The position numbers were made by a program, and so were the translations under genes. Shown here one piece after another: positions 2,230-36,768 of a stretch of DNA of 36,768 nucleotides. Below the pieces are notes generated by a model, which saw nothing but the letters and a program-made list of their open reading frames with translations, did not search any database and was not told the DNA's origin. This DNA comes from a virus: the IMG/VR virus record IMGVR_UViG_3300003885_001289, positions 1 to 36,768 of that record. The stretch is one strand, 5' to 3'. Within the stretch, counting starts at the first letter, position 1, and every line of letters starts with the position of its first letter.

Positions 2230-2546
2230 GCGCGCTCGAGTGGGGCTCGCTCTCCGCCTTCTACCGTGAGCGCGGCGGCCAGCGCTCCGGCGAGACGGAC
2301 TTTGGCGTTTGGTGGTATGCCGGCGATGATCGGCGCGGTCCGCCTTATCGCGTCAGCTGGGTCCAAGCAACCGGCGACGTCTACGCATACGAGCAATGGA
2401 AGAGCTCCGTCATCCTGATCGGCAACTGCGAGACTCACGCCATGATCGAGCAGCTGCTCCGCGGATGGGCGGAGAAATGCGGATCCGTTGGTTCGCTCGA
2501 TTGGATCCACGAGCGCCTCGAGCTCGCGGGGAAGGCGCTGCTCTGA
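2226..2546 (+). CDS. Hypothetical protein, 106 residues
   Basis: Unrecognised soluble protein. The N-terminal half is rich in aromatic residues (FGVWWYAG, YRVSWVQATG) and looks like a small beta domain. The C-terminal part looks helical (MIEQLLRGWAEKCG). It overlaps the tiny membrane peptide upstream by ATGA and the DUF5131 gene downstream by TGATG. Confidence 0.45.
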   Translation: MSALEWGSLSAFYRERGGQRSGETDFGVWWYAGDDRRGPPYRVSWVQATGDVYAYEQWKSSVILIGNCETHAMIEQLLRGWAEKCGSVGSLDWIHERLELAGKALL

Positions 2547-3592
2547 TGGCGAAGACGGCGATCAAGTGGGCAACGCACGTCTGGAATCCGGTAACAGGCT
2601 GCAGCCGCGTCAGCCGCGGCTGCGATAACTGCTACGCCTTCGCGCTCCATGACTTCCGCCATTTGCAGAACAAGGCCGCGCTGGCGAAACACAACGATTG
2701 GCGGCGCGGTTGGTTCGGCTCGCAGATTCCCGATCTGACATTCGAGCTCGCGCGGGGCGATGCCATCGCCAGCGCGGAGCTCCCATGGCCGGCGCAATAC
2801 GATCAGCCATTCTCAACCGTTCAGCTGCTCCCGGACCGCCTCGAGCAGCCTGTCAGCTGGGGGCCGCGCACGAAGCCGCGGCGCGTCTTCGCAAACTCGA
2901 TGAGCGATCTCTTCCATGAGCGGATCCCGGAGGCATATATCGATCAAGTCTTCGCAGCGATGGCGCTCGCGGACCGCCATCAATTCCTAGTGCTGACGAA
3001 GCGCCCGGAGCGGATGCTCGAGTATCTGACAGAGCACATGGACCGGCCGGCCAATCAGACGCCGCAGGCTCGCATTGCTCGAGCAGCTGAAGAGCTCGCC
3101 GCCGGCCGCGGCGAAGACGTCAGCTCGCCATGGTGGGATCTATGGCTCGAGCGTTGGCCGCTCGCGAACGTTTGGCTAGGCGTCAGCGTTGAGGATCAGG
3201 CAACCGCGGATAAGCGGATCCCGCTCTTGCTGAAGGTCCCGGCCGCGGTCCATTGGGCTTCATTTGAGCCGCTGCTCGATGAGGTTCGGATCGGCCGTTG
3301 GCTCCCGGAGCATCCGCCGGCGCTGCAGCTCGAGCCGGCGCTCGATTGGGCCGTTGTTGGCGGCGAGAGCGGACCGCGCGCGCGAGAGATGGATCTCCGC
3401 TGGGCTCACATGATCCAATCGAGTTGCGAGCAGGCCGGCGTTGCCTACTTCGGGAAGCAGGCAAGCGGACCGAAAGCCGGCGCGCCGCTGCCCGGCGAGC
3501 TGGGAGCTCAAGCCTTCCCGATGCAGCCGCTCGAGCATCTGCGCTCCGCCGCATACACAGATCGCCATGATCATCCGGAGCCGCCGCGATGA
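2546..3592 (+). CDS. DUF5131 (phage Gp37/Gp68) family protein
   Basis: 348 residues counted from ATG 2546. This start is chosen over an in-frame upstream ATG at 2396 because it matches the family N-terminus (IKWATHVWNPVTGC) and gives a TGATG overlap. The signature cysteines are C19-x6-C26-x2-C29 followed by YA. Later conserved blocks are also present: NSMSDLFHE, VLTKRPERM, WLGVSVEDQ, ASFEPLL and VGGESG. The family is widespread in phages and prophages and resembles radical-SAM-like TIM-barrel proteins. The biochemical reaction is not established; nucleic-acid modification is the usual guess. Confidence 0.85.
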   Translation: MAKTAIKWATHVWNPVTGCSRVSRGCDNCYAFALHDFRHLQNKAALAKHNDWRRGWFGSQIPDLTFELARGDAIASAELPWPAQYDQPFSTVQLLPDRLEQPVSWGPRTKPRRVFANSMSDLFHERIPEAYIDQVFAAMALADRHQFLVLTKRPERMLEYLTEHMDRPANQTPQARIARAAEELAAGRGEDVSSPWWDLWLERWPLANVWLGVSVEDQATADKRIPLLLKVPAAVHWASFEPLLDEVRIGRWLPEHPPALQLEPALDWAVVGGESGPRAREMDLRWAHMIQSSCEQAGVAYFGKQASGPKAGAPLPGELGAQAFPMQPLEHLRSAAYTDRHDHPEPPR

Positions 3593-3855
3593 GCAGCGAG
3601 CCAACATACAAGCTATCGCAGCTCCCAAAGCCCGGCGAACCGCTCAGAGACGCGCGGCCTTGCGATCGCTGTTACGCGCTCGTGCGCCTCGGCACGACCG
3701 TCCGCGGCAACCGCGCGTACTTTGATTTCGCGGACCCTCATCCGAATCATCACATCACATGCGCGGCGACCGCGAACGCGAACGCGCCCGGCGCGCCGGC
3801 GCCCAACCGCGGCGAACCTGAAGCCGTCCAGGCCAAGCTGGGGCTGCAGATCTGA
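3589..3855 (+). CDS. Small putative metal-binding protein
   Basis: 88 residues with C25-x2-C28 and then H51, H54, H55 and C58, a spacing that could bind one zinc ion. The rest is polar and Pro/Ala-rich at the C-terminus. No named family recognised. It overlaps the DUF5131 gene by ATGA and the JAMM gene by TGATG, so it is made together with both. Confidence 0.45.
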   Translation: MSSEPTYKLSQLPKPGEPLRDARPCDRCYALVRLGTTVRGNRAYFDFADPHPNHHITCAATANANAPGAPAPNRGEPEAVQAKLGLQI

Positions 3856-4322
3856 TGCGCCGCCTAAAGCTCTCTATGCAGTATTACGCCGCCATCTGCG
3901 AGCAGGCGGCGGAGGCGGCGCCTGATGAAGCATGGGGCATTATCGCCGGCGTCGATGACGTCTCCGGCGACGGTCGCCGCCGGCTCCCGGCCGGCCTCTT
4001 CCCGATGCAGAACGTCTCCGCGGAACCGCGTTGGAATTTCGAGGCGGACCCGGCGGAAGCGAAATCCGTTGCCGATGAAATCAACGCGCGCGGTTGGAAC
4101 GTCTTCCTTATCTATCACTCGCATCCGCGAACGCCGACGGCGCCATCGGAGCAAGATCTCGAATTCTCCGCGGACTTCCCGGACGCCGCTGGCTTCCTCA
4201 TTCTCTCGCTCGAGAATCCCGAAGAGCCGCGTTTCTACGCCTACCGGCTCGATGACGAAGGCCGAGAGCAGGAGCTCGAGCTCGTGACGCTCTCCATGGC
4301 TGACATAGGAGCGGCATCATGA
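3855..4322 (+). CDS. JAMM/MPN (Mov34, M67-type) metalloprotease domain protein
   Basis: 155 residues with a complete JAMM metal-protease motif: E25, then H88-S-H90, seven residues, S98-x2-D101. Family knowledge says the two histidines and the aspartate hold zinc and the glutamate activates water. The length is that of a free-standing JAMM domain like bacterial Mec proteins, which cut sulfur-carrier or ubiquitin-like tails. In tail modules the JAMM domain normally pairs with an NlpC/P60 domain, but this gene lies in the early operon instead. The substrate is unknown. It is coupled on both sides. Confidence 0.85.
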   Translation: MRRLKLSMQYYAAICEQAAEAAPDEAWGIIAGVDDVSGDGRRRLPAGLFPMQNVSAEPRWNFEADPAEAKSVADEINARGWNVFLIYHSHPRTPTAPSEQDLEFSADFPDAAGFLILSLENPEEPRFYAYRLDDEGREQELELVTLSMADIGAAS

Positions 4323-4504
4323 GCCTGCCGGGATTTGCAGGCGGCATGAGACGTCCGCTCCCGCCGCCGCCGCCGCCGCCATCTGACACGCTGGGCTATG
4401 GTCTAAGTTGGAAGGCTTGGGCGGTTGTGCTCTTTGTCAGCGCCGCGATTGTTGGCCTCTCTGTTGGGATCATGCTCGCGTTGTTCGGCTTGGGAGTCAT
4501 CTGA
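4319..4504 (+). CDS. Small proline-rich single-pass membrane protein
   Basis: 61 residues. The polar N-terminus carries a run of eight prolines (about residues 14-21), followed by one hydrophobic helix of roughly 27 residues (about 33-59) that reaches almost to the C-terminus. It overlaps the JAMM gene by ATGA and the methyltransferase gene by TGATG. This layout suggests a tail-anchored peptide exposing a proline-rich tail. Function unknown. Confidence 0.5.
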   Translation: MSLPGFAGGMRRPLPPPPPPPSDTLGYGLSWKAWAVVLFVSAAIVGLSVGIMLALFGLGVI

Positions 4505-5052
4505 TGCCGTTGCAGCTCCCGGCCGGCATGAGACAACGCGCGCGGACCGGCTTCATCGATCCGCCTTGGAAGTTTGGCGATCCTCTTCCCGGCGCCAAAC
4601 GCGGAGCCGTCCGGCATTACGAGCTGCTCGACGTCGAAGAGATCGCCGCCGCCTATGACGTGCCAGCGCTGATGCTCCCGGACTCTCGGATCGTGCTCTG
4701 GCGCGTCTCTTCGATGCAACGCGAGGCGCTCGATCTTCTAGACCTTTGGGGATTCGAGCTCAAGGCGGAGCTGGTATGGCGGAAGCTCACGAAGACGGGC
4801 AAGCTCTGGTTTGGCATGGGCCATCAGACGCGGGCGGCTCATGAGACGGCGCTCATCGCGGTCCGCGGGAAACCGCGGCGCAAGAGCGCGAGCGTCCGCT
4901 CCGTCTTCGATGCGCCATGGGCAGGCCATTCCGTCAAACCTGATCGCGCATACGAGATCGTCCGGGAGCTCTCGCCGGGACCGTTCCTCGAGCTCTTCGC
5001 TCGACGGCCGCGCGAGGGCTGGACAACGTTAGGATTGGAGCTCGAAAAATGA
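4504..5052 (+). CDS. MT-A70 family DNA adenine N6-methyltransferase
   Basis: 182 residues from ATG 4504, chosen over an upstream in-frame ATG (4408) because it gives the TGATG overlap. The catalytic DPPW motif is at residues 19-22, preceded by an FI strand. Further blocks match the family: VLWRVSS, ELVWRKLTKTGKLWFGMGH with H-E-T following, and FLELFARRPREGWTTLG at the end, the SAM-binding part in this circularly permuted class. It probably methylates adenine in phage DNA, protecting it from host restriction or marking regulation sites. Target sequence unknown. Confidence 0.85.
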   Translation: MPLQLPAGMRQRARTGFIDPPWKFGDPLPGAKRGAVRHYELLDVEEIAAAYDVPALMLPDSRIVLWRVSSMQREALDLLDLWGFELKAELVWRKLTKTGKLWFGMGHQTRAAHETALIAVRGKPRRKSASVRSVFDAPWAGHSVKPDRAYEIVRELSPGPFLELFARRPREGWTTLGLELEK

Positions 5053-7762: not shown

Positions 7763-7932
7763 TGATGCTCGTTTGGGGAATGGTAACGATCACTATGCGC
7801 GGATCCGCGTTCGCTCAATGGTTCATTTGGGCTCCGGAGGATGCGGTTCTAACGCCGGAGATCGCTGATCGCGTCTGGAAACTCGAGCTCATTTGGCAGC
7901 AATTCATGAACGCCGGGAGCAACCGATCATGA
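7762..7932 (+). CDS. Small hypothetical protein, 56 residues
   Basis: The frame runs from ATG 7762 to TGA 7932. Its start overlaps the previous stop (TGATG) and its stop overlaps the PP-loop gene start (ATGA at 7929). The peptide begins with a mildly hydrophobic stretch (MMLVWGMVTI) and contains several tryptophans; it is not a clear membrane helix. The coupling supports translation. Function unknown. Confidence 0.4.
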   Translation: MMLVWGMVTITMRGSAFAQWFIWAPEDAVLTPEIADRVWKLELIWQQFMNAGSNRS

Positions 7933-8699
7933 GGATCATGAGCTTCGGCGGCGGCATCCAAACAACCGCGCTCGCGATCATGGTTGGCCGGCGCGAGGTC
8001 GAATGTGACGCGATGATCTTCGCGGATACCGGCGGCGAACATCCGAAGACGTACGAGCATCTCGAGATGCTGCAGGCATGGCTGAAGGATCGCGGATATC
8101 TCGGCTTTCAAACGGTCCGCGCAAAGAAGGTCCAACCGCTCTATGAGTACGTTCGGGACGTCTCGACAGTGATCCCGATCCGCGTTGGACACAACGAAGC
8201 GCTAGGCCGGCGCCAGTGTACGCGGCAATGGAAGATCACGCCGATCCTCGAGGCCGCGCGCGCCATGACAGCGGAACGGCCGATCATCATGCAGCTCGGG
8301 ATCTCGATGGATGAGATCCATCGCATGAAAGACAGTCCGGACAAGGACGTTATCCGCGAGTGGCCGCTCATCGATCTCATGATGACTCGTGAGGATTGCC
8401 GGCGCGTCATCATGGACGCCGGCATTGACGAACCGCCAAAGAGCGCCTGCTATTTCTGTCCGCTCTTGCCGGCGGCATACTTCCGGCAACTCGAAGCGAA
8501 TGAGCCGGCGCTTTTTGAGAAGGCCGCGGATCTTGAAGACGCGATGAATCAACGTGAGATCGACAAAGGCCGGGACAAGCGCGTTTATCTAACGGCGCTA
8601 GGCCGGCCGGTTCGCGAGCTCGCCAACGGTCAGCTGAGCATGCGCGAGCTGCTCGTATCAGGTGAGGGCGAGGAATGCGAGGGATCATGTTTCGTATGA
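7929..8699 (+). CDS. PAPS-reductase-like PP-loop ATPase-family protein
   Basis: 256 residues from ATG 7929. The N-terminal SFGGGIQTT (residues 5-13) is a variant PP-loop for ATP binding, followed by a strand ending FADTGGEHPKT. C97 in CTRQWKITPI and C174-x2-C177 (CYFCPLLP) are conserved cysteines of the phage phosphoadenosine-phosphosulfate-reductase-like group and could hold a metal cluster or carry sulfur. Phage members are unlikely to do sulfate assimilation; adenylating chemistry on DNA, RNA or a nucleotide is a common proposal. Coupled on both sides by ATGA overlaps. Confidence 0.75.
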   Translation: MRIMSFGGGIQTTALAIMVGRREVECDAMIFADTGGEHPKTYEHLEMLQAWLKDRGYLGFQTVRAKKVQPLYEYVRDVSTVIPIRVGHNEALGRRQCTRQWKITPILEAARAMTAERPIIMQLGISMDEIHRMKDSPDKDVIREWPLIDLMMTREDCRRVIMDAGIDEPPKSACYFCPLLPAAYFRQLEANEPALFEKAADLEDAMNQREIDKGRDKRVYLTALGRPVRELANGQLSMRELLVSGEGEECEGSCFV

Positions 8700-13375: not shown

Positions 13376-15038
13376 GTTTGTTGGGACCGCCTACGCGCGC
13401 GCGGTTGTTGCCGGCGAGATTCCGGCTGGCGAGCTGGCGCGGCTGGCATGCGAGCGGCATCTCCGCGATCTCAAGCGCGGCCGCAACTCCGGCTATTATT
13501 TCGATCAGCGCGCCGCGGAGCGCGCAATCGATTTCTTTGCCTTCCTCAAGCACAGCAAAGGCGAATGGGCCGGCCGGCGCTTCGAGCTCGAGCCGTGGCA
13601 GCTCTTCATTATCGGCTGCCTCTTCGGTTGGAAAAACACAGCTGACGGGCTTCGCCGGTTCCGAAAGGCATACATCGAGCTTCCGCGGAAAAACGGTAAA
13701 TCGACGCTTGGAGCTGGGATCGGAATGTATCTCTTCGTCGCTGACGGCGAGCCCGGCGCGGAGGTCTACACGGCCGCAACGAAACGAGATCAGGCGAAGA
13801 TCGTCCATTCTGAAGCAACCCGGATGGTCAAAAAATCGCCAACGCTCCGCCGCCGCGTCCATGTTACGAATCAGAATCTCAGCATTGAAAAGACGTCTTC
13901 AAAATACGAGCCTCTCGGAGCTGATGGCGACACTATGGACGGGCTCAACGTTCATGGCGCGATCATCGATGAGATTCACGCTCACAAGACGCGGGACGTT
14001 GTTGACGTGCTAGATACTGCAACCGGCTCCCGCCGGCAACCGCTGATCGTTGAGCTGACAACGGCCGGCTATGACCGCCATTCGATTTGTTGGGAAGAGC
14101 GCGAGCATACCGCGCAAGTGCTCCGCGGAACGATCAACGATCCGTCATGGTTCGGAATCATTTACGGCATCGATGAGGGCGACGATTGGCGGGATCCGAA
14201 GATATGGGCGAAGGCCAATCCCAACTATGGCGTCAGCGTCAAGCCGCAAGATCTCGAGCGGAAGTCCCGGAAGGCGCTCGAGGTTCCAGCCTATCAAAAC
14301 ACGTTCCGCCGGCTGCATCTCGATCAATGGACCCGGCAGGAATCGCGATGGCTGGATATCAACGTTTGGGATGAGACGGCCGGCGCGCTCGTTGAGTTCG
14401 AGCAGCTGAAGGGCCGCGATTGCTTCGCCGGGTTGGACCTGGCATCAACAACGGACCTAGCCTCTCTAAATCTGATCTTCCCGCCGGCGGATCCGGTCAA
14501 GGGCGTCTATATTACGGTTCCGTTTTTCTGGATCCCCGGAGACAACATCGAAGAGCGCGGCCTCCGGGACCGGGTTCCTTATCGAGAATGGGTAGACGCC
14601 GGGTTGATCACGGCGACGGAAGGGAACGTCATTCACTATGACGCGATCCGCGGGAAGATCCTCGAGCTGCAGGAAATCGTAAACATTCGCGAGCTCGCGT
14701 TTGACCGCTGGGGCGCAACCCAGCTCTCCCAGCAGCTAGACGATGCCGGGCTCACGGTGATCCCGTTCGGGCAAGGGTACGCCTCGATGAGTCCGCCAAC
14801 GAAGCAGCTGCTCGCGCTCTGTCTCGAGCGCCGGCTCCGCCATGGTGGGAATCCGGTTCTGCGCTGGATGGCTGACAACATGGTTGTTAAGACGGACCCG
14901 GCGGCGAACGTGAAACCGGACAAGGAAAAGAGCACAGAGAAGATTGACGGGATGGTAGCAATGATCATGGCTCTCGATCGCGCGGACCGGCACGAAGAGC
15001 GGCCGGCTTGGGGAGTCGCGAAAGGTAACGCATCATGA
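13353..15038 (+). CDS. terL: Terminase large subunit (Terminase_1 family)
   Basis: 561 residues. The N-terminal ATPase shows Walker A PRKNGKST (111-118) and Walker B GAIIDE (202-207). The C-terminal nuclease begins at AGLDLAST with D362 as a probable metal ligand and has a later FDRWGA block. The length and the order of motifs are those of HK97-like large terminases. It pumps DNA into the prohead through the portal and cuts concatemers. The start lies inside the small terminase gene without an obvious ribosome site, so translation is probably coupled. The stop overlaps the portal start by ATGA. Confidence 0.95.
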   Translation: MAKSKQNEFVGTAYARAVVAGEIPAGELARLACERHLRDLKRGRNSGYYFDQRAAERAIDFFAFLKHSKGEWAGRRFELEPWQLFIIGCLFGWKNTADGLRRFRKAYIELPRKNGKSTLGAGIGMYLFVADGEPGAEVYTAATKRDQAKIVHSEATRMVKKSPTLRRRVHVTNQNLSIEKTSSKYEPLGADGDTMDGLNVHGAIIDEIHAHKTRDVVDVLDTATGSRRQPLIVELTTAGYDRHSICWEEREHTAQVLRGTINDPSWFGIIYGIDEGDDWRDPKIWAKANPNYGVSVKPQDLERKSRKALEVPAYQNTFRRLHLDQWTRQESRWLDINVWDETAGALVEFEQLKGRDCFAGLDLASTTDLASLNLIFPPADPVKGVYITVPFFWIPGDNIEERGLRDRVPYREWVDAGLITATEGNVIHYDAIRGKILELQEIVNIRELAFDRWGATQLSQQLDDAGLTVIPFGQGYASMSPPTKQLLALCLERRLRHGGNPVLRWMADNMVVKTDPAANVKPDKEKSTEKIDGMVAMIMALDRADRHEERPAWGVAKGNAS

Positions 15039-16369
15039 CGCTCCGAAGCAGGATCGCGGCGCCATTTGTGGCCGCCGGAAAAGCGCTCAGCTCCGGCCTC
15101 AAGGCAACGATGAGCTGGAGCGGCCGCGCAACGTGGGGCCTGATGTGGGCGCTCCGGACTAAGTTTGATTACGCGAAAGAGGTTGGCGACGGCTCCCGCT
15201 CGAGTATCGTCATGAGCGTTTTGCTCTGGATGAGCCGGACGTTCCCGGAGGCGCCTCTCTTCGTCGGCCGCGAGCTGCTCGGGACCGGGCTCGAGCTCGA
15301 GCGCGTTCCCGGCCATCCAATGACGCGGCTGATTGAGCGCCCAAATAAATTCTATTCCGGCGTTCTGCTCTGGACGGCGACGATCATCGATTGGGCGCTG
15401 ACGGGCAACGCCTATTGGATCAAGGTCCGATCTGAGGCGGATCTCCCGGTTGAATTGTGGTGGGTTCCGTCTCATCTGATCGAACCGAAATGGCCGAACG
15501 ATGGAAAGACGTTTGTTGGCTGGTACGACTACAAGCCGGATCCGGGCCGGCAAGCGCGGCGGATCGAGGTCCGGGACGTTGTTCATTTCCGTTACGGCAT
15601 GGACCCGAACAACACGCGCAAAGGCCGGACCGCGCTCGCAACGCTGCTCCGCGAGATCTTCACTGATGAAGAGGCGGCCAACATGACGGCCGCGCTCATG
15701 AAGAATCTCGGCGTTCCCGGCGTCATCATCGCTCCGGACTCGCCAGACGCGAAGGTTGAGGACGATGCCGCGCAAGAGGTCAAGGACGAATTTAAGAGAG
15801 ACTTCAGCGGCGATAATCGCGGCGAGCCAATGGTCATGAAGGGGCCAACGAAGGTGTCCGTTCTGTCATGGAGCCCGGATCAGATGAATCTGCGAGATCT
15901 CCGCCGGATCCCGGAAGAGCGCGTAACGGCCGTCTATGGCGTGGCCGCGGTTGTCGTTGGCTTGGGAGCCGGCCTCGATCGCTCGACGTTCGCTAACTTC
16001 CATGAGGCGCGCGAGTCCGCCTATGAGAGCAACATCATTCCAACGCAGCGGCTCTTTGCCGCGGAACTTCGCTCCCAGCTGCTCCCGGACTTCGATGATG
16101 ATCCGGAGCTGATGCCAGCCTTCGATCTCACTCAGGTCCGCGTTCTGCAGCCGGATATGGACAAGCTCTATGAGCGCGTAAATAAGGGAGTCAACGGCGG
16201 CTGGCTGACGGAAGCGGACGCGCGGCGCGCGGTTGGCATGCCAACGGAGCCGGAGCATGATCGCTATCTCCGGCCGCTGCATATCACAGAAGTTCCCGCC
16301 GGCGGCCGGAAAGCGGAAATGCCGATGCTGCCAGCGGATGCGGACAACCCGGCGAATCAAGATGGCTAG
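15035..16369 (+). CDS. Portal protein, HK97 family
   Basis: 444 residues, normal for the family. Recognisable blocks include SSIVMSVLLWMSRTFPEAPL near the N-terminus, HPMTRLIERPN, LTGNAYWIKVR, VHFRYGMDPNN, and later FKRDFSGDNRGEPMVM and PEERVTAVYGV. The portal forms the dodecameric ring at one head vertex, docks the terminase and later the connector. It overlaps the terminase gene by 4 bases and the head morphogenesis gene by 8 bases. Confidence 0.95.
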   Translation: MTLRSRIAAPFVAAGKALSSGLKATMSWSGRATWGLMWALRTKFDYAKEVGDGSRSSIVMSVLLWMSRTFPEAPLFVGRELLGTGLELERVPGHPMTRLIERPNKFYSGVLLWTATIIDWALTGNAYWIKVRSEADLPVELWWVPSHLIEPKWPNDGKTFVGWYDYKPDPGRQARRIEVRDVVHFRYGMDPNNTRKGRTALATLLREIFTDEEAANMTAALMKNLGVPGVIIAPDSPDAKVEDDAAQEVKDEFKRDFSGDNRGEPMVMKGPTKVSVLSWSPDQMNLRDLRRIPEERVTAVYGVAAVVVGLGAGLDRSTFANFHEARESAYESNIIPTQRLFAAELRSQLLPDFDDDPELMPAFDLTQVRVLQPDMDKLYERVNKGVNGGWLTEADARRAVGMPTEPEHDRYLRPLHITEVPAGGRKAEMPMLPADADNPANQDG

Positions 16370-17807
16370 CCCAAAGACAGCCGCGGCGCTCTCGGAGCGG
16401 ATCGCTCAAACTCGCTCCGTCATTGCGGATCGCTTTGAGCCGGTGATCGAGAGGTTTTTTGCTGAGCAAGCCGCTCGCGTTGGCGCGCGGATCGAGCGCT
16501 TCGCCGGCTCCGCAAATCAGCTCTTGCCGCGGCCGGCCGAAGAGGACGCGCTCAACGCGGCGCTCCGTCCGCTCTGGCTGCTCGCGCTCGATCAGGGTTG
16601 GACGGCAACCGCGGAAACTTTCGGCTTGCCGGCGGAATTCTCCGCGGCCGCGCAACCCGTCACGGAAGCGCTCGCAAAGGGCGAGATCCGCGCGGCGCGC
16701 ATCATTGCGGCGACTCGAGCCGATCTAGATGCGGGGCTAAGCGAAGGCGAGCAGCTCGGCTTGAGCAGGGAAGAGATCGCGAACGGCCTTCCCGCCGGCG
16801 AGCTGAAGGCGGCAAACCTAATAAGCGCGGCCGTTCCTTCGCGCCGGAAGCGTTTCAAGGGGCTCAAAGAGCGAACCGCACAGCATTTTGAAGGGTACGC
16901 CGGGACCGTGGCGCGGACGGAAGCAACATGGGGAACGAATATGGGATCGCTCGCCGCCGGGACCGCATCCGGCTTCCCTCGCGTGAAGATGCATGACAGC
17001 ACGGATCATGAGCCTTGCGCGTCCCGAAACGGCCGGATCGTCAGCGAACGCGCGGCGTCGGTTGCCGCTGACGCTGAACATGCAAACGGCCGCCTCTCAT
17101 TCGAGCCGGTCACAGATGAGCCCACATCCGCTGAGGCTCTCGAGAGCCGCAGCGGAGGCGTTGGGAGCGCGGAGCTCGAGGACGTAGTTGAAAACATAAA
17201 CGATCTCACGCCAGATAAAGTGCTCCGATATGACAGGGTTGCAAAAAAGCCAAGCCGCGCGTTGGCAGACGTTCAGGCGGAAATGGAAGAGCAGCTAGGG
17301 AATCTCGCGGAATACAAAGAGCTCAAAACAGCGATGCGCGCATGGACCCGTAATTCAGACAACATCCGGAAGGGCTCCAAACGGCTCCTAAAGGCCGGCG
17401 GTCCAATCGTTGATAACAGTCCGGCCGGCCGGCTTATGCGCGCTGTCAGCGCGGCGCCTCAACGGACCGGCAACCTCTACAGAGGGATGAAAATAAAGAA
17501 GGGCAGCATCGATGACGTTGCCGCTCTCTTCCAGCAAGGCGCAACCGTTGATCTGCCTCTCTCATCGGCAACAACGCAGCGATCCGTTGCAAAGCTCTTC
17601 AACAGGATCACGAAGGGCGCGCCGGATGATTTAGGTCACATTCCGGTAATGGCGACGATTCAAAACGCACAGGGGCTAGAAGTTGGCGCGTTTTCAACGT
17701 TTGGAGAGGCTGAAGTTGTGATCGGCGGACGCTTTGAAATCATCAGCGTTAGGAAGTCCGGCGGAACGGTGAACATCGTACTAAGACAGATCGCGAGGCT
17801 GCCATGA
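16362..17807 (+). CDS. Head morphogenesis (Mu F/SPP1 gp7-like) protein with C-terminal ADP-ribosyltransferase domain
   Basis: 481 residues from ATG 16362. Residues 1 to about 250 are a helical minor head protein ending in the typical EGYAGTVARTEATWGTN and PRVKMHDSTDHEPCASRNGRIV region. Residues about 365-481 look like an arginine-type ADP-ribosyltransferase: R374 in LYRGM, S401-S402-A-T-T, and E449-A-E451 after STFG. These correspond to the R-S-E triad with an ExE motif, so transferase activity on arginine is expected. The head part likely enters the procapsid via the portal; the enzyme part could be packaged and delivered. No damage to the triad is visible. Confidence 0.8.
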   Translation: MASPKTAAALSERIAQTRSVIADRFEPVIERFFAEQAARVGARIERFAGSANQLLPRPAEEDALNAALRPLWLLALDQGWTATAETFGLPAEFSAAAQPVTEALAKGEIRAARIIAATRADLDAGLSEGEQLGLSREEIANGLPAGELKAANLISAAVPSRRKRFKGLKERTAQHFEGYAGTVARTEATWGTNMGSLAAGTASGFPRVKMHDSTDHEPCASRNGRIVSERAASVAADAEHANGRLSFEPVTDEPTSAEALESRSGGVGSAELEDVVENINDLTPDKVLRYDRVAKKPSRALADVQAEMEEQLGNLAEYKELKTAMRAWTRNSDNIRKGSKRLLKAGGPIVDNSPAGRLMRAVSAAPQRTGNLYRGMKIKKGSIDDVAALFQQGATVDLPLSSATTQRSVAKLFNRITKGAPDDLGHIPVMATIQNAQGLEVGAFSTFGEAEVVIGGRFEIISVRKSGGTVNIVLRQIARLP

Positions 17808-17968
17808 CGATCCCGGATCGCCAACCGCCGCCGATGGACCATTACGAAGAGCCGGATCCCGAAATTGAGGCGTTGTTTGGGACTCCGTTCGATCAGCTCC
17901 GGGCGAAGGATGGCCGAGTGGATCCCAGCGGCGGAGATGACGAAGAGCCGGAAGGAGAAAACGAATGA
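17804..17968 (+). CDS. Small acidic protein between head morphogenesis and protease genes
   Basis: 54 residues from ATG 17804 to TGA 17968. It is acidic and Pro-rich (YEEPDPEIEALFG, GGDDEEPEGENE at the end) with no membrane segment. ATGA overlaps at both ends, and an AAGGAG site for the next gene lies in its last codons. Function unknown; a translation bridge or scaffold accessory is possible. Confidence 0.45.
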   Translation: MTIPDRQPPPMDHYEEPDPEIEALFGTPFDQLRAKDGRVDPSGGDDEEPEGENE

Positions 17969-19281
17969 AATATGCGATCAAGGTGCTCGACGCTAAGCAA
18001 GGGCTGATCACCGGCCTCGGGATCCCTTACGGCGGACCCGTTCCCGGCGGAGCCGGCAAGGGTCGAGATCTCGAGGGCGAATGGTTTTCCGGAGCAACGG
18101 ATTTCAAACTCGATTGGTTCCCGGATGAAGGCCGGCCGGCGCTCTACGATCACGGCATCAACCCGGCGATCAAGGCGGACGTCATCGGCCGGCAGATCGA
18201 GAAACGCATCGATCCGGAGGTTGGGATCTTTACAACCGTTCAGCTGAACATGGCTCACAAGTATTCCAGCGCGATCCTCTCGCTCGTGGAAGACGGAAAG
18301 CTCGGATTTTCGAGCGGCGCCATGAAGCATCTTGCGAAGGTCAACCGGAGCGGCCATATCGAGCAATGGCCATGGGTTGAGCAGACGCTCACGACGGTTC
18401 CCGCGAATCCCTACAGCCTGATCCCGGCAGAGGCGGTCAAGCATCTCGGATTGCTCGGGCTCGAGATCCCGGCGGAGCTGGGCGCGGCGATGAAGGGCCG
18501 CGCGCTCGCGGCGTTCATCGAGAATCAGCTCCCGGACGATGACGAAGATCGCGCGGAGATGGTTGGCCGGATGGCGACGGCCGCGTCGATCTCCGTTTCA
18601 ACCGTCAATCAGATCGCGCGCGGAGAGGTCACTTGTCCGCCGCTCGAGCGCCTCGAGGCATTCGCCGGCGTTCTGTCTGTCAGCGTTGGCGCGCTGACGG
18701 CTGCAGCTGAGCGCGACGGCTGCGAATATGACGCGGCCGGCAAGCGTGTAACAGCCTTCAACCTGAAGGCGCTAGAGCTGCCTGATGACGTCTCCGTTGA
18801 GGATCTGCATCAGCGCTTGCGCGCGGCCATCGCGGACCGCTTCCCGGCGCTCTCGTCGGCTGACGGTCCGGGATTCTGGATCACGGCCGTTTTCGATGGC
18901 AACGTTGTTATCGAGCGCGGCGATGACTTCATTCAGATCGATTTTGAGCTCGACACTGACGCGGCCGTATCGCTTACGAGCGAGCCGCAAACCGTCGAGC
19001 GCCGGACGTCATTTGAGCCGGCGGCCGCTCCCGCGGCAAAACGATACTCAGAACAGGCTGCAGAGCTGCTTGCTGGCGTCTCAGCCTTTTTAGAGCGCTC
19101 GAGATCGCTTGCTGATCTCAGGGCGAAGGATGGGCGGCTTCTGTCTGACAGCGCCTATAAGGGGCTGCAGGACGTCTCCGGCGAGCTCAGCGAGCTCCTG
19201 CAGGCGACAGAGCCGGCCGCGAAGGGCCTCGAGAGAGAGAGGCTCCGCTATGAGCAGCTGCGAGAGAGGCTCCGCGCTTAG
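17965..19281 (+). CDS. Prohead protease with internal XRE-like HTH and C-terminal scaffold-like tail
   Basis: 438 residues. Residues 1-160 match phage prohead serine proteases: H63 in LYDHG, S116/S117 in GKLGFSSGAM, then WPWVEQTLTTVPANP. Residues about 199-249 read as an XRE-type HTH (ATAASISVSTVNQIARGEV, then LERLEAFAGVLSVSVGAL). Residues about 262-350 form a beta-rich domain with ITAVFDGNVVIERGDDFIQI. The C-terminus from about 370 is charged and coiled-coil-like, fitting a scaffold that is digested during maturation. The HTH insertion is unusual. It lies immediately before the capsid gene. Confidence 0.8.
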   Translation: MKYAIKVLDAKQGLITGLGIPYGGPVPGGAGKGRDLEGEWFSGATDFKLDWFPDEGRPALYDHGINPAIKADVIGRQIEKRIDPEVGIFTTVQLNMAHKYSSAILSLVEDGKLGFSSGAMKHLAKVNRSGHIEQWPWVEQTLTTVPANPYSLIPAEAVKHLGLLGLEIPAELGAAMKGRALAAFIENQLPDDDEDRAEMVGRMATAASISVSTVNQIARGEVTCPPLERLEAFAGVLSVSVGALTAAAERDGCEYDAAGKRVTAFNLKALELPDDVSVEDLHQRLRAAIADRFPALSSADGPGFWITAVFDGNVVIERGDDFIQIDFELDTDAAVSLTSEPQTVERRTSFEPAAAPAAKRYSEQAAELLAGVSAFLERSRSLADLRAKDGRLLSDSAYKGLQDVSGELSELLQATEPAAKGLERERLRYEQLRERLRA

Positions 19282-19354: not shown

Positions 19355-20992
19355 ATGGAATCGATGAATGGATTCGGGCTGATTGCCATCGTCGCGCTTG
19401 TCGCGGCGCTGATGTTCGCGCTCGAGACGGGCGGCGCGGCGATCGCGGCCGCCATGGACGCGGTATTTCCCGGCGAGCCTGCTCGATGGGAAAACTTCAA
19501 CCGCCGGACGCGCCGGCAAGTCTTCGGGATCCGCATTCCAACGTTGGCCGGCCTTCGGACCGGGCTTGTGAATGCATTCAACCGGCGGCTTGCCGGGATC
19601 CGCGAGCAGCTCGAGCAGCTGCAGGATTCAACGCTCGCCGCCAGGCTCGCCGGCATCGCCGGCGCTGAAGAGCTCCGGACGCTGAAGGAAGTCCGGGACG
19701 AGATCGGCACGAAGTCCGCGGAGCTCGCGAAGGTCTTCAAGGAAGCCGGCTCGAATTACGATATGGACAAGGTGACTTGTCTCGAGGGCGATGACGCCAA
19801 AGACAGCGCCAGCAAAGCGCTCTGGATCTCGACCCGAAACGATGCGCTCGCAACCCTGGGCGAAGAGGTTGACACGATCAGCAAGTTCGCGAACGCTGAC
19901 GCCGCCAACAAGCGGATCGATTCATGGCTCAACATGCCGGCGGCCGGCAACGGTCACATCCAGCCGGGCGGCGACGGCGGAGCCGGCGGCGACAATGGCA
20001 ACCGCGGAGCCGGCAAAACGATCGGGCAGCTCTACGTTGAGAGCGCAGCCTATCAGGATTTCGCGAGCGGCTCCGGTCCGCCGGTTGAGCTCGATATCAA
20101 CCTGAAGAGCCTACTCAGTTTCGGCCGGGACGCTCCGGGAGCGGAGACGCCGGCCGGAAAGACGCTCTTCCAGACGTCCGCAGGCTGGGCGATTGAGAGC
20201 GTCCGCGGTGATCGCGTCGAGCTGACGCCGGAGCGCCGGCTTGTTGTGGCTGATCTCCCGATGCTATCGGAGACGTCTCAGAACGCGATCAAGTACATGG
20301 AAGAGACAACGAAGACGCCGGCCGCGGCGGAAGCCGCGGAGGCCGGCTCCTACGCGGAGGCCGCATTCGCGCTGACGGAGCGGAGCTCCCCGGTAGAAAA
20401 GATCGCGGTCTTCATTCCGGTTACGGATGAGCAGTTTGACGATGAGCCGCGCGCGCGCGATTACATCGATAACCGGCTAATTCGAGCCATCAACGAGCGC
20501 CTCGATTCGCAGCTGCTCGTTGGCGATGGCAACGCTCCCAACCTCGAGGGGATTCTCAACGTTACCGGGATCCAGACTCAGGCGAAGGGCGCGGATCCTG
20601 TCATCGATGCCGTCCACAAGGCGATCACGCTCGTTGAGCATACGGGCTTTGCTCAGCCTGACGCGGTTGTGATGCATCCGAACGATTGGCAAGCGATCCG
20701 CCTGCTCCGGACGGCTGACGGGATCTACATTCTCGGCAACCCGTCAGAGCGCGGACCCATGCGGCTTTGGAGCCTTCCCGTTGTAGTCACAACGGCGGAG
20801 ACGGAGAATACGGCCATCGTTGGCGAGTTCCGAACATACTCGGAGCTCTCGGTTAAGAACGGGATCCAGCTGAAGGTATCGGATTCGCATTCGGATTTCT
20901 TCATCAAGGGCAAGCTCGCGATCCGCGCAGAGATCCGCGTTGCCTTCCCGGTCTACCGGCCAAAGGCATTCTGCACAGTGACGGGCATCTAA
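19355..20992 (+). CDS. Major capsid protein, HK97 fold, with hydrophobic N-terminal segment
   Basis: 545 residues, preceded by GGAGG (19341-19345), a strong ribosome site. The C-terminal 300 residues carry HK97-type capsid features: IAVFIPVTDEQFDDEP, a helix with INERLDSQLLVGDG, GILNVTGI, and VVMHPNDWQAIRLLR, then the SLPVVVT and FFIKGKLAIRAEIRV strands. The N-terminal 200 residues are helical (ELRTLKEVRDEIGTKSAEL) and likely act as an internal scaffold cleaved by the protease. Unusually, residues about 6-32 form a hydrophobic helix long enough to span a membrane. It builds the icosahedral shell. Confidence 0.9.
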   Translation: MESMNGFGLIAIVALVAALMFALETGGAAIAAAMDAVFPGEPARWENFNRRTRRQVFGIRIPTLAGLRTGLVNAFNRRLAGIREQLEQLQDSTLAARLAGIAGAEELRTLKEVRDEIGTKSAELAKVFKEAGSNYDMDKVTCLEGDDAKDSASKALWISTRNDALATLGEEVDTISKFANADAANKRIDSWLNMPAAGNGHIQPGGDGGAGGDNGNRGAGKTIGQLYVESAAYQDFASGSGPPVELDINLKSLLSFGRDAPGAETPAGKTLFQTSAGWAIESVRGDRVELTPERRLVVADLPMLSETSQNAIKYMEETTKTPAAAEAAEAGSYAEAAFALTERSSPVEKIAVFIPVTDEQFDDEPRARDYIDNRLIRAINERLDSQLLVGDGNAPNLEGILNVTGIQTQAKGADPVIDAVHKAITLVEHTGFAQPDAVVMHPNDWQAIRLLRTADGIYILGNPSERGPMRLWSLPVVVTTAETENTAIVGEFRTYSELSVKNGIQLKVSDSHSDFFIKGKLAIRAEIRVAFPVYRPKAFCTVTGI

Positions 20993-36303: not shown

Positions 36304-36768
36304 CTAGCCGGCGTATTCCTCAAGCAGTTCGATCCCGCGCTGCTTCTCTAGCGCGCGGTCCGCAGCTCCCCATTCGAGGTAATGCAATGTTGTAGCGAGC
36401 CGGGCATGGCCCATCAGGAGCTGGAGTGAATGCGGATCCTTCGCTCGCTCATCGAAAAGATGCGCGAAGGTGGTCCGGAATCGATGCGGGAAGGCATGGA
36501 CGGACGCGCGCTTTCCCAGTCTGTAAATGACGTAGTAGAAGCCCATCCTCGTTAGTTGTCCGCCGCGATTATTCAGCCATACAGGACCGTCGCGATCTTC
36601 GAGGTATTGATCGAGGGCTCCCATTGCGATCGCGCCGGGGGCAACGAGCCGATTGCGTTTCCCCTTCCCGCGGACCTTGATATAGCCGGCTTCAAGATCG
36701 ATATCCCCGCGCTGCATGCCCGCAATTTCAGCGAGCCGGCAACCTGTAACAAACAGGATGAAGATCAT
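36304..36768 (-). CDS. int: Tyrosine recombinase integrase, 5' part cut by the window edge
   Basis: 154 residues of the catalytic end. Numbered from the first methionine, the conserved residues are R11 in TGCRLAEIAG, a lysine in GKGKRNR (about 35), H95 and R98 in PHRFRTTFAH, H121 in LLMGHARL, and nucleophile Y130 in TTLHYLEW. The gene continues beyond base 36768, so the N-terminal DNA-binding domains are missing here. It carries out site-specific integration, so the phage is temperate. An attachment site is expected nearby but none is recognised. Confidence 0.9.
   Translation of the reverse strand: MIFILFVTGCRLAEIAGMQRGDIDLEAGYIKVRGKGKRNRLVAPGAIAMGALDQYLEDRDGPVWLNNRGGQLTRMGFYYVIYRLGKRASVHAFPHRFRTTFAHLFDERAKDPHSLQLLMGHARLATTLHYLEWGAADRALEKQRGIELLEEYAG

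What the first reader, a model, noticed from the sequence alone, without database searches (positions are those of the whole stretch)
17460..17807. ADP-ribosyltransferase domain fused to a head morphogenesis protein
Seen: R374 in LYRGM, S401-S402-A-T-T and E449-A-E451 behind a normal minor head protein of the Mu F/SPP1 gp7 type. Known: the R-S-E triad with ExE marks arginine ADP-ribosyltransferases, and such fusions to phage head proteins have been noted in family surveys. Inferred: the enzyme may be packaged in the head and injected with DNA to modify host targets, as T4 does with Alt.
Basis: partly seen in the sequence, partly recalled or inferred. Interest (0 to 1): 0.72.

Follow-up and report, generated by a model that had tools for sequence, protein, structure and literature searches.

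The report
Phage head protein carrying an ADP-ribosyltransferase
A temperate phage carries, on the tail end of a minor head protein, an enzyme domain that sticks ADP-ribose onto proteins, probably carried in the virion and injected with the DNA; this is one more member of a known kind of phage weapon, and it comes with a tiny, strongly acidic neighbouring protein that may be its antidote.

Summary
The gene is window 16362-17807 (481 aa). A profile built from other phage ARTs, without the window, finds this domain at E=7e-11 (39.8 bits against 9.2 for the best of 1000 shuffles). An AlphaFold2 model of residues 297-481 (pLDDT 85.6, pTM 0.80) matches solved ARTs: Vis, XopAI, Tre1.

MuF-ART fusions are published (MuF toxins, Bxa, viral ART surveys), so this is a new member of a known kind.

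Additions. (1) The nearest relatives have portal and MuF fused in one gene, no ART, and the protease gene directly behind; the window lies inside that clade but has a separate MuF gene with an added ART tail. (2) A 54-codon ORF (17804-17968, pI 4.1) sits between the ART (pI 10.6) and the protease, with overlapping ATGA at both ends: a candidate immunity protein or assembly partner. (3) Across 11 phage ART families the charges of the ART and the small following ORF are anti-correlated (rho -0.83), unlike control gene pairs; a post hoc test.

Packaging, injection, activity, target and immunity were not shown.

The parts
16362..17807 (+). MuF-type minor head protein with C-terminal ADP-ribosyltransferase (481 aa; start ATG overlaps the portal stop as ATGGCTAG)
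16362..17126 (+). MuF-like domain (residues 1-255), homologous to the C-terminal part of fused portal proteins L001-L003
   Evidence: no Pfam match of its own
17127..17249 (+). linker between MuF and ART (residues 256-296), absent from relatives
17250..17804 (+). ART domain (residues 297-481), R-S-ExE type, pI about 10.6
17481..17483 (+). codon of R374 (NAD-binding Arg of the R-S-E triad)
17562..17567 (+). codons of S401-S402 (S-T-S type motif)
17706..17714 (+). codons of E449-A450-E451 (ExE; E451 is the predicted catalytic Glu)
17804..17968 (+). 54-aa acidic ORF (pI 4.05, net charge -13), ATGA overlap with the ART gene and with the protease gene; candidate immunity or assembly partner
   Evidence: absent from seven ART-less relatives
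15035..16369 (+). portal protein, separate gene here but fused to MuF in nearest relatives
17965..19281 (+). gene in the position of the prohead protease; follows the MuF stop by a few bases in relatives that lack the ART

Best explanation
A temperate tailed phage has a MuF toxin: a portal-bound minor head protein whose C-terminal domain is an R-S-E clade mono-ADP-ribosyltransferase. The MuF part most likely docks the protein at the portal inside the head, so that a few copies enter the cell with the DNA, where the ART uses NAD+ to modify host proteins, probably on arginine (inferred from ExE). Targets could be host takeover proteins, as for T4 Alt, or essential proteins, as for the toxin Bxa. 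The 54-aa acidic protein translated directly behind it would bind the strongly basic ART and keep it inactive in the producing cell. Shown: sequence, domain homology, predicted fold, gene order, and absence of ART and small ORF in the closest relatives. Inferred: packaging, injection, enzyme activity, acceptor, and the role of the small ORF. The stated confidence is for an ART-type head-borne effector; the role of the small ORF alone is about 0.45.
For: ART profiles without the window find it; R374/S402/E449/E451 conserved; AF2 model pLDDT 85.6, pTM 0.80; PDB matches Vis E=8.6e-10, XopAI 7.9e-8, Tre1 2.9e-7, all probability 1.00; viral matches include an 'ADP-ribosyltransferase domain and MuF-like fusion protein' and phage head morphogenesis proteins. 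MuF identity 42% over 248 aa to the portal-MuF fusion of L002, between portal and protease. ART and small ORF are both absent in seven relatives whose protease gene starts within 0-27 bp of the MuF stop. The extension has lower GC (0.56) than MuF (0.65) or the window (0.62). Integrase at 36304-36768. Precedent: MuF toxins, 14% of 191 being ARTs and 89% followed by a small ORF (PMC5576092); Bxa with two immunity proteins (PMC11699363); head-fused viral ARTs (PMC9503650).
Against: No virion proteomics or activity data. Pfam alone gives only E=0.049 for PF01129, so the assignment rests on wider profiles and the model. PDB TM-scores are modest (0.5-0.6). The 54-aa ORF has no known homologue; a stop-free reading by chance in that gap is 16%. 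Portal and MuF are one indel apart, so a sequencing frameshift could mimic the split.
Confidence: 0.8

Rival explanations
1. Polymorphic-toxin reading: the ART mainly kills or inhibits competing bacteria, or superinfected cells lacking the antidote, rather than reprogramming the host for phage growth; the small acidic ORF is the immunity protein that protects the lysogen.
For: Temperate phage; small ORF present only together with the ART and directly behind it; opposite charges, also across other families; Bxa and Tre1 precedents.
Against: Related MuF-ART genes with acidic followers occur in Bradleyvirinae such as the PaMx28 relatives, which I recall as lytic, where lysogen immunity makes no sense; no homologous toxin-immunity pair is known for this ORF.
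Confidence: 0.4
2. T4 Alt reading: an early host-takeover enzyme (for example RNA polymerase modification); the small acidic ORF is an assembly chaperone that keeps the ART silent until packaging.
For: Same fold group as phage RNA polymerase ADP-ribosylases; acidic followers also behind ARTs of Bradleyvirinae minor head proteins; about 44% of phage ARTs lie in head-packaging contexts (PMC9503650).
Against: No target evidence; no similarity of the MuF part to Alt was seen.
Confidence: 0.4
3. The ART is an inactive structural remnant.
For: ARTT loop two residues shorter than in most relatives (EAEVVIGGRF against EREVLFMPGTRF); no direct activity data.
Against: All triad residues kept although overall identity to other ARTs is only 17-25%; L076 has the same short loop and the triad in a different phage.
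Confidence: 0.1
4. The portal/MuF split is a sequencing or assembly frameshift, and the phage really makes a portal-MuF-ART fusion.
For: All close relatives are fused; the two genes are in frames one indel apart.
Against: A clean ATGGCTAG stop/start overlap is typical of translational coupling; MuF genes separate from the portal gene are the usual form elsewhere (PMC5576092); L007 also has a portal without MuF.
Confidence: 0.2

Closest known systems
MuF toxins (Jamet et al. 2017, PMC5576092)
   Same: MuF protein gene directly behind the portal, C-terminal effector, ARTs among the commonest effectors, small ORF directly behind, temperate phage
   Different: MuF is divergent (no Pfam match) and belongs to a clade where it is normally fused to the portal
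Bxa of a Bacteroides stercoris prophage (PMC11699363)
   Same: MuF + C-terminal ART, with neighbouring immunity genes
   Different: Bxa is 869 aa with a middle domain and has an ADP-ribosyl hydrolase (BAH) beside it; none seen here in the ORFs scanned with Pfam; MuF parts not compared
ART-bearing minor head proteins of Bradleyvirinae-type phages (Elanor, PaMx28, ZQG1, Donnerlittchen)
   Same: R-S-ExE ART at the C-terminus of a minor head/morphogenesis protein, acidic small ORF behind
   Different: about 1150-1200 aa protein; ART identity 23-25%; no match found outside the ART
L076 (IMG/VR 3300031707_000094) MuF-ART
   Same: ART homologous over 170 aa (26%), same short ARTT loop
   Different: unrelated-looking MuF (best local match 35 aa, E=0.03) and a basic, not acidic, follower
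Tre1-Tri1 and Lmo0066 ART effector-immunity pairs (PDB 6dre/6drh, 8za7)
   Same: ART fold, ART effector with a neighbouring immunity protein
   Different: not a phage head protein (Tre1 is in a PAAR-repeat protein); 18-19% identity
Phage T4 Alt
   Same: head-carried R-S-E clade ART that acts on injection (proposed mode here)
   Different: not a MuF fusion; target unknown here

Membership tests
R-S-E clade ADP-ribosyltransferase (PF01129/PF03496 type) | catalytic triad R, S-T-S type Ser, ExE Glu | tested here: met
R-S-E clade ADP-ribosyltransferase (PF01129/PF03496 type) | ART fold | tested here: met
   (predicted model)
R-S-E clade ADP-ribosyltransferase (PF01129/PF03496 type) | Pfam gathering score (a database cut-off, not a biological defining feature) | tested here: not met
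   PF01129 13.4 bits against a cut-off of 22.3; relatives pass
R-S-E clade ADP-ribosyltransferase (PF01129/PF03496 type) | NAD-dependent ADP-ribose transfer | not testable with these tools
   needs biochemistry
MuF superfamily head proteins | gene directly downstream of the portal gene in the packaging module | tested here: met
MuF superfamily head proteins | sequence homology to MuF domain | tested here: inconclusive
   no Pfam match itself; 42% to L002 tail; sister portal-MuF tails match PF04233 weakly, 6.7e-6 and 8.5e-4, below gathering
MuF polymorphic toxins | C-terminal toxin/effector domain on a MuF protein | tested here: met
MuF polymorphic toxins | small ORF under 150 aa directly behind | tested here: met
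   54 aa at 17804-17968
MuF polymorphic toxins | temperate phage | tested here: met
   integrase at 36304-36768
MuF polymorphic toxins | toxicity and neutralisation by the small protein | not testable with these tools
   needs expression assays
T4 Alt-like injected ART | present in virions and injected | not testable with these tools
   needs virion proteomics

The most novel reading that the evidence does not exclude
Head-borne ARTs of phages are generally encoded with a small, charge-complementary partner (acidic for basic ARTs, basic for acidic ones) that holds the enzyme silent by electrostatics, in lytic as well as temperate phages. In this lineage the acquisition of the ART and partner went with splitting of a portal-MuF fusion, which would lower the number of enzyme copies per virion from about twelve to one or two.
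Probability: 0.25. Interest if true: 0.55.

Novelty: new member of a known kind. Interest (0 to 1): 0.36.

Why it matters
It adds a diverged ART to the MuF effector family in a lineage where the before-and-after of the acquisition can be read from close relatives: effector tail, small partner and gene split appear together. The charge complementarity between ART and follower gives a cheap, testable rule for finding antidotes or chaperones of head-borne enzymes. If the follower is only coincidental, the find is ordinary.

Tried and rejected
Single-sequence AlphaFold2 of the whole protein failed (pLDDT 44) and was not used. Searches with the whole protein or domain in viral contigs, genome contigs and plasmids found nothing; an alignment query had no conserved stretch. 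A phmmer match to glutamate synthase was rejected as chance (E 0.6). The Vibrio phage BONAISHI match (H3) was dropped: the aligned region lacks the triad. An ADP-ribosyl hydrolase in the window was considered; none was found in the ORFs scanned with Pfam. The promoter/terminator scan gave nothing that stands out from chance. Two of the three contigs from the first motif scan were chance matches (L074, L075). The raw follower statistics are dominated by one phage group; I therefore used one row per follower family.

Full report
What is there. The ORF runs from ATG 16362 to the stop at 17805-17807 (481 aa). The ATG overlaps the portal stop (ATGGCTAG). The upstream gene is a portal (PF04860, E=8e-51) behind a terminase large subunit, and an HK97-type major capsid gene follows at 19355. 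A tyrosine integrase fragment lies at 36304-36768 on the minus strand, so the phage is probably temperate. The record is a 36.8-kb virus contig.

The ART domain. R374 (LYRGM), S401-S402 (SSATT) and E449/E451 are in place. Pfam sees only a weak ART match for the isolated domain (PF01129, 13.4 bits, E=0.049). A distant tblastn hit (22% identity, E=0.2-0.4) led to a faecal phage head protein (L063) whose tail passes the PF01129 cut-off, and from there to minor head proteins of Bradleyvirinae-type phages such as Elanor, PaMx28, ZQG1 and Donnerlittchen, whose tails match PF01129 and PF03496 at 1e-14 to 1e-17. A profile from these alone finds the window ORF at E=1.5e-7, best of 343 ORFs; widened with viral contigs, still without the window or L076, it gives E=7e-11, and 39.8 bits for the domain against 9.2 for the best of 1000 shuffles. 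Aligned with 32 viral-contig ARTs, R374, E449 and E451 are invariant and S402 nearly so; ExE was in the gathering pattern and so is not independent. AlphaFold2 with this alignment gives pLDDT 85.6 and pTM 0.80. Foldseek returns ARTs at the top: Vis, XopAI, C3, Tre1, Lmo0066 in the PDB, and phage ARTs, head morphogenesis and minor capsid proteins among viral models. The profile of the alignment also matches solved ARTs by sequence (Vis, E=8e-33). The window has a two-residue shorter ARTT loop, shared with L076.

The MuF part. Residues 7-250 match the C-terminal part of portal proteins L001-L003, 42% identity over 248 aa to L002. Those portals are fused to MuF and stop soon after the HPN motif. 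Two sister portal-MuF tails match PF04233 weakly. The window's MuF has no Pfam match, so its membership rests on homology to these tails and on its position behind the portal.

What was gained. In seven relatives (L001-L006, Sinorhizobium phage Aussie) the next gene starts within 0-27 bases of the MuF stop, with no extension and no small ORF, and no ART anywhere in the records held (some are fragments). The portal tree places the window inside the fused clade (100/100 for window+L001-L003; 89/92 with L002), so the split form is the derived one unless it is a sequencing frameshift, which I cannot exclude. The window has about 226 extra residues and then a 54-codon ORF (17804-17968) joined by ATGA overlaps at both ends. 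GC of the extension is 0.56 against 0.65 for MuF and 0.62 overall; GC3 is 0.61 in the extension and 0.63 in the small ORF against 0.70-0.77 in the neighbours. The openness of the small ORF alone is weak evidence (16% by shuffling).

Charge pattern. The ART tail has net charge +12 (pI 10.6), the follower -13 (pI 4.1). Basic phage ARTs mostly have acidic small followers, while the acidic ART of L076 (-13) is followed by a +11 ORF. With one row per follower family, rho=-0.83, n=11 (-0.79 without the window); 80 non-ART gene pairs from the same contigs give +0.27, and 1 of about 4000 random control samples of 11 reached -0.72. This was seen in the data before it was tested, some followers may not be real genes, and families were chosen by hand, so it is a lead.

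Mechanism. [quoted passage not shown] Bxa, a MuF-ART, is antibacterial and neutralised by two neighbouring proteins (PMC11699363). Viral ARTs are often fused to MuF (PMC9503650; see also PMC5512222). The best explanation is therefore a head-borne ART delivered with the DNA and kept silent by the small partner. Whether it serves takeover or killing is open; I weigh the two equally.

Verdict. Confirmed observation, mostly right interpretation, known kind. The additions are the gain of tail and partner in a lineage with fused portal-MuF, and the charge rule as a hypothesis.

Noticed in passing
window 17965-19281: The protease-position gene (438 aa) carries a Cro/CI-like HTH match (PF01381 E=8e-4, residues 203-242) in its middle; the L002 counterpart is 341 aa, so this looks like an insert.
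   Followed up: no
window 3855-4322: Prok-JAB (PF14464, E=2.4e-15) metalloprotease-like gene in the early region, away from tail genes; possibly an anti-defence protease.
   Followed up: no
window 2396-3592: DUF5131 / phrog_2045 gene (E=2.4e-70), unknown function.
   Followed up: no
window 7893-8699: PAPS-reductase-like gene (phrog_424, E=4.7e-34), in the same region as a DNA methyltransferase gene at 4408-5052.
   Followed up: no
L131 5084-10177 (minus): One 1698-aa open frame with four ART domains in tandem in a viral contig.
   Followed up: no
L064-L071 and L084, L111, L114, L117, L126, L147, L149: ART-bearing minor head genes of Bradleyvirinae-type phages are followed at once by a conserved 88-97 aa acidic protein (motif FAPGVPDDPDAVPELxYQ).
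   Followed up: partly
window 36304-36768: Integrase gene runs off the end of the record, so the phage genome is cut or circularly permuted here.
   Followed up: no
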